This document shows positions 47,382 through 51,853 of a stretch of 51,853 bases of DNA, one piece after another (position 1 is the stretch's first letter; every line of letters begins with the position of its first letter). The translations under genes were made by a program, and so were the position numbers. Source of the stretch: Bacteroidota bacterium (GTDB taxonomy: Bacteria > Bacteroidota > Ignavibacteria > Ignavibacteriales > Melioribacteraceae); contig JAHISP010000073.1 of NCBI GenBank assembly GCA_018818165.1, positions 1 through 51,853 of the forward strand, given 5' to 3'. Below the pieces are notes generated by a model. It was not told the DNA's origin. It did no database searches and worked only from the letters and a program-made list of their open reading frames with translations.

Positions 47382-49175
47382 TCATCGTAACAATATCATT
47401 TTTTTTATTTCATGAAAATTCCCTGCATTCAACTGATAGAAATATATTCCACTTGAAAGATTGGCTGCATTAAAATTATATTCATAAACTCCAGCTTCTT
47501 TAATCTCATCAACGGCGTTAAAAACATTTTCCCCCAAAATATTTGTAATATTCAATTTCACGTTTGATTGTGTTTTCAATTCATATTTTATTTTTGTTGA
47601 AGGATTAAATGGGTTTGGGTAGTTTTGAAATAGATTATACCCGGTTGGATTGGATTGTTCATCTTTAACATCTATGGTCACATTATCCTTTACGCATCGG
47701 ACAGATAATGCATCATCTGGGTGAAATTCTCCAATATGCATTTCTTCATTATCATAACTTAATTGAATTCCTGCCACAGCTGGGTGATTTGGAACTGATT
47801 GATCTGTTGATGTAATAAATGCACAAAGACTATCCTTCCATTGAAATTCTTGCCAAAAGGCAAACATTCCTGCAGGAAGAGATGCAAACCCACTTTCATT
47901 TGTTGCGCCTGTATTAGGGCTTAACCAATGTAAATTACCAACTTCTTTCATTTTTCCACCAGCAATGTTAGTCCCTCCCAGATAAGTTGCAAGTTCTTGC
48001 CACTCCGCTTTACTTGGAAGATGCCAACCAACTGGAGCAATACCTTGAACATTGCTTGGATTAGTTTTGCTACTTAAATGGTTCTTCATAGCAGCAGCCC
48101 AAGAATATAGTCTCCCATATATCGGTACATTATTAGAATCATTATTATAATTGTAATATGATATAGGAGTTCCATCACTATAATGAGTACTTCTTAGGTT
48201 TTCAGCCATCCAAGTCTGGTTGCCGATTTTTACAGTTTTGTATTTGTTCCCATCGTAATCTGTGACTAACGAAGCTTCTTCGATAAGATTAAAAACAACA
48301 TTTGCATCTACCCAATATGGGTTTCCGCCCGCCGCATCTGGCATCCAGGCTTCAAAGAAAAAATATTTACCATCACGTGAAATAATTGGTGAAATTACAT
48401 AACCAGAATTAATTATTGCCCCCAAATTAATAGGTGTTTCCCAAGTTCCATCGGAGTTCTTTTTACTTATATAAATATCAGTATTTCCTAAACCTCCAAG
48501 CCGTCTTGAAGCAAAAATTATAAACCTTTCCGCTGGGTCAATAAATGGTGTGAAATCCAATTCTGGACTGCAAATTGTGCTCAATTTTTCTGCTGATCTG
48601 TACAAACCACTAACAAAACGCCAAACATATATATCTTCTTGTCCGTTCTTACTTAGCTCGGCATAAATATTCCCATTATCAGCAATGGAAAATTGCCATC
48701 CTGTAGAATATCCACTTGGAATTCGTATATTTAACGAAAGTGGTGAAGACCAGGTGCCATTAGTTCTTGTTACTTTAAAAATAGGACCAGATGGTCTAGA
48801 TGATAGGAAATATAGGGTATCTTTATTGCTCGAAAAGTATGGATTGTTATTACCATAATCGTCATTGGAGAAGGGTGCTTTTTTAGGAGTAATCCAAACG
48901 CCATTGATACATTCTGTAAACCATATTTCAATTCTACCTGGATTGAATCGGTAAATGGCATAATACATTTCATTTCCATCTGGGGAAAATGTTGGTGTTC
49001 CATGATATTGCCATTCACTGTTAGCAGCAAGGCTATCTGGAACTAATCGTACCGGAATATTGCCAGGAGGAGTTTGCCCTAGATAAGGCACACTTTGAGA
49101 TAAAACGTCTGTTGCTAGTAGAAATATAGCACAAGCAATAATAAATAAAACACGCATTAAAAATAATTTTTTCAT
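47382..49175 (-). CDS. PD40 propeller fused to FISUMP domain with type IX sorting domain
   Basis: 597 aa. A signal peptide to about residue 27 is followed by the PYLGQTPPGNIPVRLVP motif shared with the gene at 39439. PD40 blades cover about 50-290 (FSPDGNEMYYAIY, FIDPAERFIIFASRR, ISRDGKYFFFEAW). A FISUMP (Fibrobacter succinogenes major paralogous) domain lies at about 300-500 (YKTVKIGNQTWMAENLRS, YGRLYSWAAAM, APVGWHLPSKAEWQEL, LSVRCVKD), then a sorting domain from NYPNPFNPSTKIKY ending KKMILLR. Both middle modules are extracellular; ligand unknown. It is a longer relative of the genes at 39439 and 49255. Confidence 0.88.
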   Translation of the reverse strand: MKKLFLMRVLFIIACAIFLLATDVLSQSVPYLGQTPPGNIPVRLVPDSLAANSEWQYHGTPTFSPDGNEMYYAIYRFNPGRIEIWFTECINGVWITPKKAPFSNDDYGNNNPYFSSNKDTLYFLSSRPSGPIFKVTRTNGTWSSPLSLNIRIPSGYSTGWQFSIADNGNIYAELSKNGQEDIYVWRFVSGLYRSAEKLSTICSPELDFTPFIDPAERFIIFASRRLGGLGNTDIYISKKNSDGTWETPINLGAIINSGYVISPIISRDGKYFFFEAWMPDAAGGNPYWVDANVVFNLIEEASLVTDYDGNKYKTVKIGNQTWMAENLRSTHYSDGTPISYYNYNNDSNNVPIYGRLYSWAAAMKNHLSSKTNPSNVQGIAPVGWHLPSKAEWQELATYLGGTNIAGGKMKEVGNLHWLSPNTGATNESGFASLPAGMFAFWQEFQWKDSLCAFITSTDQSVPNHPAVAGIQLSYDNEEMHIGEFHPDDALSVRCVKDNVTIDVKDEQSNPTGYNLFQNYPNPFNPSTKIKYELKTQSNVKLNITNILGENVFNAVDEIKEAGVYEYNFNAANLSSGIYFYQLNAGNFHEIKKMILLR

Positions 49176-49254: not shown

Positions 49255-49968
49255 TCATTTTAGGAAAATCATTTTCTTTGTTTCTGAATAGTAATCAGTA
49301 ATTAGTTTGTAGAAATAAATTCCTGATGATAATTCAGTTGCATCAAATTTTGTTTGATATGCTCCTGCTTCTTGTTCCTTATTGACAAGCGAAGCTATCT
49401 CTTTTCCAACCAAATCGTAAATTTTTAATGAAACGTTACTACGAGATGGTATCGAGTAACTAATTACAGTTGATGGGTTAAAAGGATTTGGATAATTCTG
49501 ATTAAGTTGAACTTCATTTGGCACTAAAGCGTTATCTTTTACATCAGTAATCATATCAGAAATAAACTTTGCGTCAACCCAATATGGATTTCTAAACCCA
49601 CCTCGGTCACTTAAAAAGAAGAAGTACTTTTTATCCTGTGAAACATAAGGAGAGCCTTCTTCAAAATTAGTATTTATGTTACTTCCCATGTTTACCGACT
49701 CACTCCAGGTTCCATCGCTATTTTTAATACTTATATACAAATCCGAGAAACCTCCAGTACCAGGTCTATTTGATTCAAAAATTATATACTGTTCATCTGG
49801 ATCAACAAAGGCACCCAAATCCATATGAGCAGAATTAATATTATCACTCATTCTTTCTGGTTGTATATATTGGCCATTAACTTTCTTAATCATATAAATG
49901 TCAAAATCGGTATTGTTATTATTATCAATAAGTTGAGTGTAGATTGTTTCATTCTTTGATATTGTCAT
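49255..49968 (-). pseudogene. 5'-truncated PD40 protein with intact type IX sorting domain
   Basis: The frame from ATG 49968 (237 codons; a TTG start would be 49989) aligns with the middle-to-end of the PD40 part of the 47382 gene: ISKNETIYTQL, then FVDPDEQYIIFESNRPGT and SDLYISIKNSDGTW. It shares NPYWVDAKF and then ends in a full sorting domain (NYPNPFNPSTVISY to KKMIFLK). The N-terminal blades, the GQTPPG motif and a proper signal peptide are absent. A stop lies a few codons upstream, and the IS110-type element begins about 130 bases beyond. Most likely truncated and not secreted. Confidence 0.65.
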
Positions 49969-50121
49969 TGTTATGTTAAAAAGCAACAAAAATATCGATA
50001 TGCAAAATTAATATTTTACTAAAGCATAAAATTACTCATTATTATAAAACTCAAAGTTCTTGTTCAAAAAATATTATTTCATACTGTTATAAACAGTCTT
50101 CCTCAATAATCAAATAAGAGG

Positions 50122-50134
50122 TGCTGCAAAATTG
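50122..50134. repeat. Subterminal inverted repeat, transposase 3' side
   Basis: TGCTGCAAAATTG, the exact inverse of 51408-51420. The bases on either side (50121, 50135) break the match, so the repeat is 13 bp. Confidence 0.75.
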
Positions 50135-50274
50135 ATATAAAAATAAAATGTGTCGCCGCAAACTCCGCAGAGCAAAGATTTATCTTGCAATGACCTAAAA
50201 AACGGTCAACACCAAAAATCAATAAAGAATGAAAAGAACAAAAGTTTCTGTTTATTATTTTGTTTGTTGTTAAT
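50135..50274 (-). ncRNA. Candidate guide (bridge/seek) RNA region of the IS110-family element
   Basis: 140 bases between the transposase stop and the subterminal repeat. On the minus strand it folds locally: TGACC/GGTCA (50191-50195 with 50204-50208, 8-base loop), GCAA..TTGC around 50172-50188, and CTC/GAG around CGCA at 50163-50172. Its central part (50150-50210) is clearly more GC-rich than the surroundings. In IS1111-type elements a guide RNA encoded in this non-coding end directs target choice. The exact RNA ends and loops cannot be set by eye. Confidence 0.4.
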
Positions 50275-51345
50275 TCACGCAACAGTTGCAATTACATACT
50301 CTTGCTGATTGACCCAAACAGCTCTTATTCTATTAAGTAATTTTTTACTTATTCTAATAATAGCTTTATTTGAAGGCATCTTTTTGCAAAGTTGACCATA
50401 AGCCATCTGCAAAGCCGGGTCTTTTCTTATAGCGATCCAAGCTGATTCTATCAAATAATTTCTTATATATTTATTTTTTTGTTTTGTTAATCCTAGATTA
50501 ATTTCTTTATCAGCAGATGAATATATAGCAGGCGAAAACCCTACATAATTTGCTAATTCATCTAATTTCTTAAATCTGTTAATATCAATAATTTCAGAGT
50601 ATAATATAACCGCAAGAATAGGGCCGATACCGGGAATAGTTTTTAGTAATCTTACAGTTTTATCAGCTTGCTGATCTTTGGCTATAAAACCTTTTATTTG
50701 TTTTAATATTTGGACTAATTGACTCCGTATAAAATTCAAATTATTGAGTAGTTCATTTAACGTTGCCTTTGATTCTTCGTGTTCAATATCTAGATTCCTC
50801 AATGCCTTAATATATCTTTGAGACCAATGCCTTGTCTCAACATCTTCGAGGACTGAATATCCTAAAAACAACAGCAAAGATTTTATTCTGTTTTTCTGTC
50901 TGGTTTGGTCATTTACAATTTGTCTTCTTAATCTTATTAAAGCTCTTAAGGCTTCAGCTTTAGTAGAAGGAATATATATGCCGTCTAAATTTCCGACACT
51001 AAGTTCTCTGGCTAATTTAGATGAATCAATTTTATCAGTCTTTTTTCTTCTTTCCTTGCTTTTAGTTGGGACATCAGCCGGATTAACAACAATGTTCTTT
51101 ATTCCAAGAGCTTGTAATTGACGATCAGCCCAAAAACCACTAAACCCAGCTTCATAAACAGAATGATAGTTTGCATTGGGGTAGTGATTTGTTAAATAGT
51201 TATATAGTTCTTTAGGATTTGGATTCATTGAAAACACTTTTACTTTCATCCCATTTAATAATATAGTTACTTGCCAGCTTTTTTTATGTACATCTATTCC
51301 GATGTAAAGTGTTTGACCAGTAAAGTCTAATTGATTATTTTTCAT
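50275..51345 (-). CDS. IS110-family transposase (DEDD recombinase)
   Basis: 356 aa, intact. The N-terminal RuvC-like DEDD domain has Asp18 (LYIGIDVHKKSWQV), Glu65 (VYEAGFSGFW), Asp104 and Asp107 (KTDKIDSSKLAREL). A central coiled coil covers about 135-225. The C-terminal Transposase_20 part has KTIPGIGPILAVIL and VGFSPAIYSSADKEIN with the candidate catalytic Ser276/277, then KYIRNYLIESAW. The enzyme uses a DEDD centre plus a serine and, in studied members, a guide RNA, to cut and rejoin DNA without target duplication. Probably active. Confidence 0.95.
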   Translation of the reverse strand: MKNNQLDFTGQTLYIGIDVHKKSWQVTILLNGMKVKVFSMNPNPKELYNYLTNHYPNANYHSVYEAGFSGFWADRQLQALGIKNIVVNPADVPTKSKERRKKTDKIDSSKLARELSVGNLDGIYIPSTKAEALRALIRLRRQIVNDQTRQKNRIKSLLLFLGYSVLEDVETRHWSQRYIKALRNLDIEHEESKATLNELLNNLNFIRSQLVQILKQIKGFIAKDQQADKTVRLLKTIPGIGPILAVILYSEIIDINRFKKLDELANYVGFSPAIYSSADKEINLGLTKQKNKYIRNYLIESAWIAIRKDPALQMAYGQLCKKMPSNKAIIRISKKLLNRIRAVWVNQQEYVIATVA

Positions 51346-51407
51346 CTCGGTATCCTTGACTGTTAGTGATATTTTATTACTTAAAAATAATTATAAATTG
51401 TTTAAGA

Positions 51408-51420
51408 CAATTTTGCAGCA
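51408..51420. repeat. Subterminal inverted repeat, transposase 5' side
   Basis: CAATTTTGCAGCA, the exact inverse of 50122-50134. It lies 62 bases upstream of the transposase start. Confidence 0.75.
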
Positions 51421-51442
51421 TGGATACCTTTTTTATTTTTAA

Positions 51443-51853
51443 ACATACAATCTCCGCACTTATACACGCCTTCAAAAAGATCATCTTTCACTTGCAACCC
51501 AGCATATTCAACACATGCAAAAAGCATTTGATTCAATGAATATTAAACTACATAATGTTATCAGCCAAATAAATGGCTCAAGCGGTATGCGTATTGTTAA
51601 GGCAATTATAGATGGTGCTCGTAATCCCAATGAACTTGCATCACTCTGTGAGGAAAGCATCCTAAAAAAGAAAAAGAATTTGGTGATTGCTTCGCTTAAA
51701 GGAAACTTCCGCGATGATTATGTTTTTGCTCTTTCCCAAGCAGTTGAGGCTTATGAGTTTTATTTGCAAAAATCTGTTGATTGCGATAAAAAAATTGAAC
51801 AACTATTAAAAGTAGTAACAAAGGATAAAGAAGAACCACTTAAAATTATAAAA
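51443..51853 (+). pseudogene. Second IS110-family transposase, N-terminally truncated, runs off the window
   Basis: 137 codons in one frame from just after a stop (51440-51442) to the window edge. LRTYTRLQKDHLSLATQHIQ, HMQKAFDSMNIKLHNVISQI, GMRIVKAIIDGARNP and YVFALSQAVEAYEFYLQ match the middle of a different IS110-family transposase. The N-terminal DEDD catalytic domain is missing, and nothing like it lies left of the other element. The break falls within about 25 bases of the first element's inverted repeat, so that element or a linked rearrangement probably caused it. Opposite orientation to the intact copy. Confidence 0.8.

What the first reader, a model, noticed from the sequence alone, without database searches (positions are those of the whole stretch)
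50122..51420. Complete IS1111-like IS110 element with a candidate guide-RNA end
An intact DEDD transposase is bounded by a perfect 13-bp subterminal inverted repeat. The long non-coding end (50135-50274) is unusually GC-rich for the region and holds several small hairpins. In published IS110/IS1111 elements this is where the bridge/seek RNA that programs target choice is encoded. A member from an Ignavibacteria-like host may have different target specificity or a smaller RNA.
Basis: partly seen in the sequence, partly recalled or inferred. Interest (0 to 1): 0.7.

Follow-up and report, generated by a model that had tools for sequence, protein, structure and literature searches.

The report
Jumping gene with its own address-RNA
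This is a small bacterial jumping gene of a known kind that appears to carry a short RNA whose two guide segments match the DNA on either side of where such elements land; [quoted passage not shown]

Summary
The element is real, but its borders are not those reported. It spans 49970-51451 (1482 bp) plus a core dinucleotide on each side. The 13-bp inverted repeat at 50122/51420 is internal: its RE copy lies in the guide RNA's donor loop, its LE copy in the transposase mRNA leader, and it does not hold up across relatives. The repeat that does is ATGTT(T)AAAAA at the true ends, with IS1111's 7-bp and 3-bp extensions.

The 305-nt non-coding end downstream of the transposase encodes a predicted seekRNA/bridge RNA. 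Its helices covary. Across relatives, flanks match their own element's RNA region better than other elements' (0 of 100,000 permutations on either side). Guide order is the one published for IS1111. Insertion points agree with 9 uninterrupted repeat copies in the same genome and with one interrupted gene.

Verdict: a new, well-supported member of the IS1111 group. The least expected feature is a covarying hairpin over or beside the transposase ribosome-binding site (29 left ends; own arms pair better than swapped arms), not found described in limited searches. No RNA data were available.

The parts
49970..51451 (-). Complete IS1111-group element (1482 bp, core dinucleotides excluded)
   Evidence: Ends shared with own-genome partial copies on C10, C19, C80 and with relatives; empty sites
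50275..51345 (-). DEDD transposase/recombinase, 356 aa; D18, E65, D104, D107 and S277; motif GFSPAIYSSA (serine followed by A, not G)
   Evidence: Pfam PF01548 and PF02371, NCBIfam NF033542; in 32 aligned proteins D18 32, E65 32, D104 31, D107 32, S277 29
49970..50274 (-). Right end (RE): 305-nt non-coding region downstream of the transposase, encoding the predicted seekRNA/bridge RNA
   Evidence: covariance-model hit at 50060-50222, the window being one of the sequences the model was built from
50150..50212 (-). Target-binding loop: stem GTGTTG.CCG / CGGCGACAC enclosing two guides and a hairpin
   Evidence: covariation, helices 1 (96.6% of cells paired) and 2 (84.6%)
50189..50194 (-). Right target guide GTCATT (antisense to AATGAC of the RE flank, core included)
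   Evidence: for the window not distinctive
50163..50169 (-). Left target guide TGCGGAG (same sense as the LE flank TGCGG + core AG)
   Evidence: run of 7; 0 of 26 other elements' RNA regions reach it
50124..50134 (-).
   Evidence: helix 3 (92.3%) supports the helix; the guide itself is weakly supported (1103 of 100,000)
50101..50121 (-). Donor-loop hairpin CCTC...GAGG
   Evidence: helix 4 (73.5% of cells paired, the weakest helix)
50084..50091 (-). Left donor guide TATAACAG (matches RE end CATAAC + core AG)
   Evidence: varies with RE end type C or A, Fisher p 4.7e-5 on 22 elements
49973..49982 (-). RE subterminal inverted repeat TTTTTAACAT, 3-bp extension (AAC) outside it
   Evidence: own 5.75 vs swapped 3.64, 0 of 100,000, n = 24
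51436..51446 (-). LE subterminal inverted repeat ATGTTTAAAAA, 7-bp extension (AGATTGT, core included) outside it
49981..49986 (-). -35-like TTGCTT in RE; with TATGTT in LE (51442-51447) and a 17-bp spacer forms a promoter-like site only when the ends are joined in a circle
   Evidence: positions; TTG at the same spacing in 20 of the 23 joined ends listed (my count); sequence inference only, no transcript
51349..51428 (-). Leader hairpin of the transposase mRNA: GGTATCC (51422-51428) pairs with GGATACC (51349-51355), overlapping the Shine-Dalgarno-like AGGA
   Evidence: own 8.24 vs swapped 4.96 bp, 0 of 100,000, n = 29
51452..51453 (.). Core dinucleotide at LE (CT on +, AG in transposase sense)
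   Evidence: empty-site comparison
49968..49969 (.). Core dinucleotide at RE (TT on +, AA in transposase sense; AG in the copy on C80)
51408..51420 (.).

Best explanation
An IS1111-group insertion sequence that moves by RNA-guided recombination. Supported by sequence here: the true ends, the covarying two-loop RNA in the RE, and target guides that track each element's own flanks. Inferred from published IS1111/IS110 work: the element is excised as a circle; joining RE to LE makes a promoter (TTGCTT-17-TATGTT); the transcript gives transposase mRNA and, downstream, a seekRNA of about 70-160 nt; the transposase uses the RNA's first loop (right guide then left guide) to choose the target and its second loop to hold the joined ends; it exchanges strands at the AG core (CT on the other strand). 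In this genome one copy sits in a REP-like repeat and one in a host gene.
For: Transposase family; DEDD and serine residues. Ends from own copies and relatives. Reconstructed repeat site TTGCTAGGAACGG[AG]TGACGAAGCAATCT corresponds to 9 uninterrupted copies in the genome (8 with no mismatch to the search pattern, 1 with one; 0 with the reversed control pattern). Joining C19 and window-left flanks gives a 402-codon open stretch aligned across the join to the paralogue at 47382-49175. Guides: core-anchored run for the left flank 5.68 own vs 3.71 swapped (n = 22), right flank 6.04 vs 3.82 (n = 24), 0 of 100,000 permutations each. Helices: 13 of 21 pairs changed on both sides, 89.2% of cells paired vs 77.3% shuffled and 32-50% when slid; 0 of 500 shuffles reach the observed value on four of five measures. 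LDG covariation p 4.7e-5. Guide order, top-strand match first, is that reported for IS1111.
Against: No transcript or activity data. Fold energy of the window RNA is ordinary. One of the five covariation measures, number of further pair types, is not above shuffles (148 of 500), and the structure tested was taken from the window's own fold, which favours it over slid versions. For the window the right guide is not distinctive (run of 4 after the core; 17 of 26 other RNA regions do as well), so the window's own case rests on the left guide. Some members match poorly: left run of 4 in L025, L053, L058, L062, L065, L068, L073; right run of 4 in the window, L025, L053, L054, L058. The test searched the whole non-coding region, and some best matches lie outside the loop (for example the left matches of L025 and L059 and the right match of L071). 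Permutations do not correct for relatedness. Right-donor-guide pairing is weak. The window's two flanks may belong to two different insertions. The transposase motif has SA where 27 of 32 aligned proteins have SG or TG.
Confidence: 0.93

Rival explanations
1. The element ends at the 13-bp repeat (50122-51420), and everything outside is host DNA.
For: A perfect 13-bp repeat is the length expected of an IS1111 subterminal repeat (11-13 bp), and IS1111 ends lie just outside such repeats.
Against: Own copies and relatives share the sequence out to 49970 and 51451 and diverge there; the empty repeat copies agree; the 13-bp repeat is not kept across relatives (8.13 own vs 7.94 swapped, 4824 of 20,000, n = 23).
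Confidence: 0.01
2. Guide-flank matches arise because insertion sites or flanks are related by descent, or because short AT-rich matches are common, not because an RNA reads the target.
For: Close relatives share targets; short runs are frequent in AT-rich DNA (unanchored left-flank matches barely exceed swaps: 6.27 vs 5.67); some best matches lie outside the loop.
Against: The swap control uses other family members as background; unlike guide sequences match unlike targets, e.g. L070 12 nt, L029 11 nt, L031 and L061 10 nt; in the aligned members the guides fall on the two sides of one covarying internal loop.
Confidence: 0.03
3. The window copy is a join of two different copies (assembly error or recombination between copies), so its flanks are not a matched pair.
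For: Window-left plus C19 flanks rebuild one gene; window-right lies in another IS110-type transposase gene; C10, C19 and C80 all end inside the element.
Against: The window LE differs by single bases from the C10 and C19 copies, which suggests a distinct copy. This affects the reading of the window's flanks, not the nature of the element.
Confidence: 0.6

Closest known systems
IS1111-family elements with a seekRNA (ISEc11, ISPa11, ISKpn4, ISPst6; Siddiquee et al. 2024, PMC11187229)
   Same: Non-coding region downstream of the transposase; guide order top-strand match 5' of bottom-strand match; subterminal repeats with 7-bp left and 3-bp right extensions; junction promoter (shown for ISEc11); retargeting by guide change (ISXne4 vs ISEc11); RNA length (ISEc11 long form 154 nt).
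   Different: Different guides and targets; repeat has a 1-2 base bulge on the left; SA in place of SG in the window transposase.
IS621 bridge RNA system (IS110 group; Durrant et al. 2024, PMC11208160; structure PMC11208158)
   Same: Two-loop RNA with target and donor guides on either strand; dinucleotide core; DEDD transposase with serine; insertion in REP sequences.
   Different: RNA is in the right, not left, end; guide order reversed; core is AG in transposase sense (CT on the opposite strand); transposase similarity is weak (phmmer E 1.9e-8).
Ignavibacteriales bacterium CG18 copy (PCUD01000046.1, L023)
   Same: 96% identical transposase, same ends.
   Different: Left guide TCGAAG matched to a TCGAAG flank instead of TGCGGAG.

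Membership tests
IS1111 group | DEDD (RuvC) plus Transposase_20 domains of the IS110 family | tested here: met
   D18, E65, D104, D107
IS1111 group | GL-P----S(t)G C-terminal motif | tested here: inconclusive
   Window has GFSPAIYSSA: serine kept, next residue A. Of 32 aligned proteins 27 have SG/TG, 3 SD, 2 SA (window and L023) (my count of its list)
IS1111 group | Subterminal inverted repeats of 11-13 bp, near-perfect | tested here: inconclusive
   ATGTTTAAAAA / ATGTTAAAAAG: 9 of 11 ungapped, better with one bulged T; covaries within elements
IS1111 group | Extensions of 7 bp (left) and 3 bp (right) | tested here: met
   AGATTGT and AAC, if the core is counted with the left end (criterion)
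IS1111 group | Long non-coding region downstream of the transposase | tested here: met
   305 nt downstream, 106 nt upstream
IS1111 group | Specific target, no duplication of target bases beyond the core | tested here: met
   One copy in a repeat with 9 uninterrupted copies
seekRNA / bridge RNA | Two RNA segments complementary to opposite strands of the target | tested here: met
   (met for the set; for the window the left guide only is distinctive)
seekRNA / bridge RNA | IS1111 order: top-strand match 5' of bottom-strand match | tested here: met
   right guide 50194-50189 precedes left guide 50169-50163 in transposase sense; order reported
seekRNA / bridge RNA | Donor loop with left and right donor guides | tested here: inconclusive
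   Left donor guide supported (p 4.7e-5), right donor guide weak (1103 of 100,000)
seekRNA / bridge RNA | RNA is transcribed and bound by the transposase | not testable with these tools
   No expression data
Rfam families (4227 in release 15) | Match to a curated RNA family | tested here: not met
   No match up to E = 1 in 49900-51853

The most novel reading that the evidence does not exclude
Besides the guide RNA, these elements keep a second regulatory RNA structure: a hairpin in the transposase mRNA leader that covers or abuts the ribosome-binding site and is maintained by compensatory change. It would act as a translational lock on the recombinase, perhaps opened or closed by the recombinase or by the seekRNA.
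Probability: 0.4. Interest if true: 0.5.

Novelty: new member of a known kind. Interest (0 to 1): 0.4.

Why it matters
It adds a clade of RNA-guided recombinases, from relatives of an Ignavibacteriales MAG, in which the guides have changed repeatedly and the matching targets are visible in the genomes. That gives ready-made guide-target pairs for testing pairing rules and for finding orthogonal recombinases. It also corrects how such elements should be bounded: a perfect internal repeat can mislead, and the outer covarying repeat and empty sites should be used. The leader hairpin gives a testable idea about how recombinase dose is held down.

Tried and rejected
GC-richness of 50135-50274: rejected. 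Fold energy as evidence: not significant. Unanchored left-flank matching: barely above swaps (6.27 vs 5.67), so core-anchored runs carry the argument. Rfam: no match. Viral contigs: 11 stretches matched a pattern, none a relative. Genome contigs: one relative, L023; that search reaches close relatives only. Solo RNAs: the covariance model hit 16 of 76 genomes; L109 and L111, which have no transposase of their own beside the RNA, look by eye like decayed right ends; the weak hits L106, L107, L108 and L110 were not pursued further. Guide runs after the core in six of these extra loci were L099 6, L101 6, L094 5, L102 4, L109 3, L111 3; they were not added to the permutation test. A promoter scan of the uncut stretch found 7 sites against 8.5 expected. 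Leader hairpin in more distant elements: of 7 plasmid elements fetched, a stem over the ribosome site is suggested in ISEc11 (7 bp; 10 of 300 shuffles reach it), less so in Gloeocapsa (25 of 300) and Acaryochloris (42 of 300), and not in the Neorhizobium (107), Raoultella (286) or Alicyclobacillus (287) elements; the Mesorhizobium one was not scored because no ribosome-site motif was found. So the hairpin may be wider than this clade but is not shown to be universal. Structure prediction was not run.

Full report
What is there. The window is all of contig C24 (51853 bases) of a 4.88-Mb, 105-contig assembly. The minus-strand gene 50275-51345 encodes a 356-aa transposase with both IS110-family domains, a distant relative of the solved ISCro4 and IS621 transposases. 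The closest named relative is a 96% identical copy in an Ignavibacteriales MAG (PCUD01000046.1). In the same taxonomic family 33 of 79 genomes have a match at E <= 0.001, and in the class sample 32 of 391 at E <= 1e-60.

Where the ends are. Three other contigs of the genome end inside further copies. C10 and C19 share the window's right side out to about 51457, and C80 shares the left side down to about 49964. Relatives keep the same outer ends: in transposase sense, AG-ATTGTATGTTTAAAA at the left and TTTTTAACATAAC-AA/AG at the right, with variants. Joining the C10 and C80 flanks rebuilds TTGCTAGGAACGG[AG]TGACGAAGCAATCT, and the genome holds 9 uninterrupted copies of this repeat (8 with no mismatch to the search pattern, 1 with one) against 0 for the reversed control pattern. 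Joining the C19 flank to the window's left flank gives a 402-codon open stretch that aligns across the join with the paralogue at 47382-49175. So the element is 49970-51451 with an AG core in transposase sense (CT on the other strand). The window's RE core reads AA.

Which inverted repeat matters. But own left and right ends share hardly longer complementary runs than swapped ones across 23 elements (8.13 vs 7.94; 4824 of 20,000 permutations). Among those 23 the exact 13 bp occurs only in the window and L023. The outer repeat ATGTT(T)AAAAA does covary within elements (5.75 vs 3.64 nt, 0 of 100,000, n = 24), and with the core counted in the left end it has the 7-bp and 3-bp extensions given for IS1111 (passage seen).

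The RNA. I examined 33 elements: the window, L023, L025-L032 and L053-L075. L024 was dropped as the same contig as L023; loci L033-L052 (partial or more distant matches) and copies listed without a locus were not analysed. A right end was found in 28 of 33; it was missing in L026, L028, L066, L072 and L075. L064 was dropped for a run of N, leaving 27; of these, elements with no or too short a flank were left out, giving n = 22 (left) and 24 (right). With runs anchored at the core and the whole non-coding region searched, the left flank matches its own RNA region over 5.68 nt against 3.71 for swapped, and the right flank 6.04 against 3.82 antisense; 0 of 100,000 permutations reach either. Allowing the match to start on either core base or just after the core, the right-flank match is 6 nt or more in 25 of 28 elements; the exceptions are L027 (flank cut at 5 nt by the contig end), L053 and L054, and the L071 match lies outside the loop. 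Striking cases are L029 (TTTCCCCTTCT), L031 (GTCTCAGCCC) and L070 (TTTGCGTTCACT), unlike the window's GTCATT. For the window the left guide TGCGGAG matches its flank over 7 nt (0 of 26 other RNA regions do), while the right guide is not distinctive (17 of 26 do as well). Members that match poorly are named under evidence against.

Structure. I hand-picked 13 of the 33 elements that share the GACC...GG loop type and aligned the RNA region. The 21 pairs I named, taken from the window's fold, form in 89.2% of cells (77.3% shuffled; 32-50% when slid), and 13 pairs change on both sides. On four of five measures no shuffle of 500 reaches the observed value; on the fifth, number of further pair types, 148 of 500 do. 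The target-loop stem is the best supported (96.6% of cells), the donor-loop hairpin the weakest (73.5%). RNAalifold predicts a similar structure on that alignment. The window RNA's fold energy is ordinary (z = -0.72). The left donor guide tracks the RE end: of the 22 elements whose RNA region holds only one of two motifs, 14 of 14 with RE ATAAC carry an ATAACAG-type motif, and 7 of 8 with RE ATAAA carry ATAAAAG (Fisher 4.7e-5; 5 of 27 set aside: 4 with both motifs, 1 with neither; the motifs were chosen after looking at the sequences). The right donor guide is only weakly supported (1103 of 100,000, n = 23).

How it compares. Siddiquee et al. 2024 (PMC11187229; abstract and outline, parts 1-2 of 4 of Results, the ISEc21 and target sections, and passages) show that IS1111 members usually have the non-coding region downstream, a seekRNA with the top-strand match 5' of the bottom-strand match in those tested, a junction promoter in ISEc11, and natural retargeting. 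Durrant et al. 2024 (PMC11208160; passages) define the target and donor loops, with the left guide pairing to the bottom strand and the right guide to the top; they predict a bridge RNA in 93.0% of IS1111s and place it in the right end. Passages of the structural companion (PMC11208158) were also seen. The present element agrees with these features in transposase sense. It is a new member, not a new kind.

A second structure. Left ends were found in 29 of the 33 elements. For each I took an in-frame start preceded by a ribosome-site-like motif (so the presence of the motif is by construction) and asked whether a segment nearer the end can pair across it: 8.24 bp for own arms against 4.96 for swapped, 0 of 100,000. 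The arms differ widely (GGTATCC, GACATCC, GTTGTCC, GGCATCCTTT, GTAAGCCTC, AAAAGTCTC), so the pairing looks kept by compensatory change. The stems are short (5-6 bp) in L027, L030, L055, L057 and L061, and in some (for example L055, L057, L061, L075) the paired arm lies beside rather than over the motif. ISEc11 shows a similar stem, other distant elements less or none. I found no report: searches 'IS1111 + transposase + hairpin + ribosome binding site' (0 papers) and 'IS110 family + Shine-Dalgarno + insertion sequence' (4 papers, listing only, none on this by title); term searches of the two main papers for ribosome, translation, untranslated and Shine gave nothing on it in the passages shown. 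This is a limited search.

Limits. All of this is sequence inference. The direction of RNA transcription follows from guide polarity and published order, not from reads. Permutations do not correct for relatedness. The window's two flanks may come from different insertions. The window-right flank is inside another IS110-type transposase gene; its closest uninterrupted relative, L077, reads CGGCAA|CTCCG at the point of insertion, which is near the left guide but does not clearly fit the right one.

Noticed in passing
49255-49989 and 51452-51853 of the window; L021, L022, L019: The two flanks of the window copy look like halves of different insertion sites: the left flank continues a gene whose other half is on contig C19, the right flank lies in another IS110-type transposase gene. 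Either the assembly joined two copies or copies recombined.
   Followed up: partly
51452-51853: Interrupted gene of a different IS110-type transposase (LRTYTRLQKDHLSL...), continuing on contig C100 with a 141-bp overlap; matches in 8 of 76 family genomes, own included, six of them read here and uninterrupted at this point.
   Followed up: partly
own genome, L084-L092: A repeat, TTGCGAGGAACGGAGTGACGAAGCAATCT, occurs at 9 places within the mismatch limit and is one target of the element; REP sequences are targets of ISPa11 and IS621 (reference title seen).
   Followed up: partly
L109 (about 1500-1660) and L111: RNA-model hits without a transposase of their own beside them: by eye they look like decayed right ends.
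   Followed up: partly
50512-50517 (S277-A278 of the transposase): The window and L023 have SA where 27 of 32 aligned relatives have SG or TG at the serine motif.
   Followed up: no
47382-49175 and 49255-49989: Neighbouring genes for similar proteins ending in a NYPNPFNPST-containing C-terminal domain (a sorting-type domain by recall, not from a call); the second is cut by the element.
   Followed up: no
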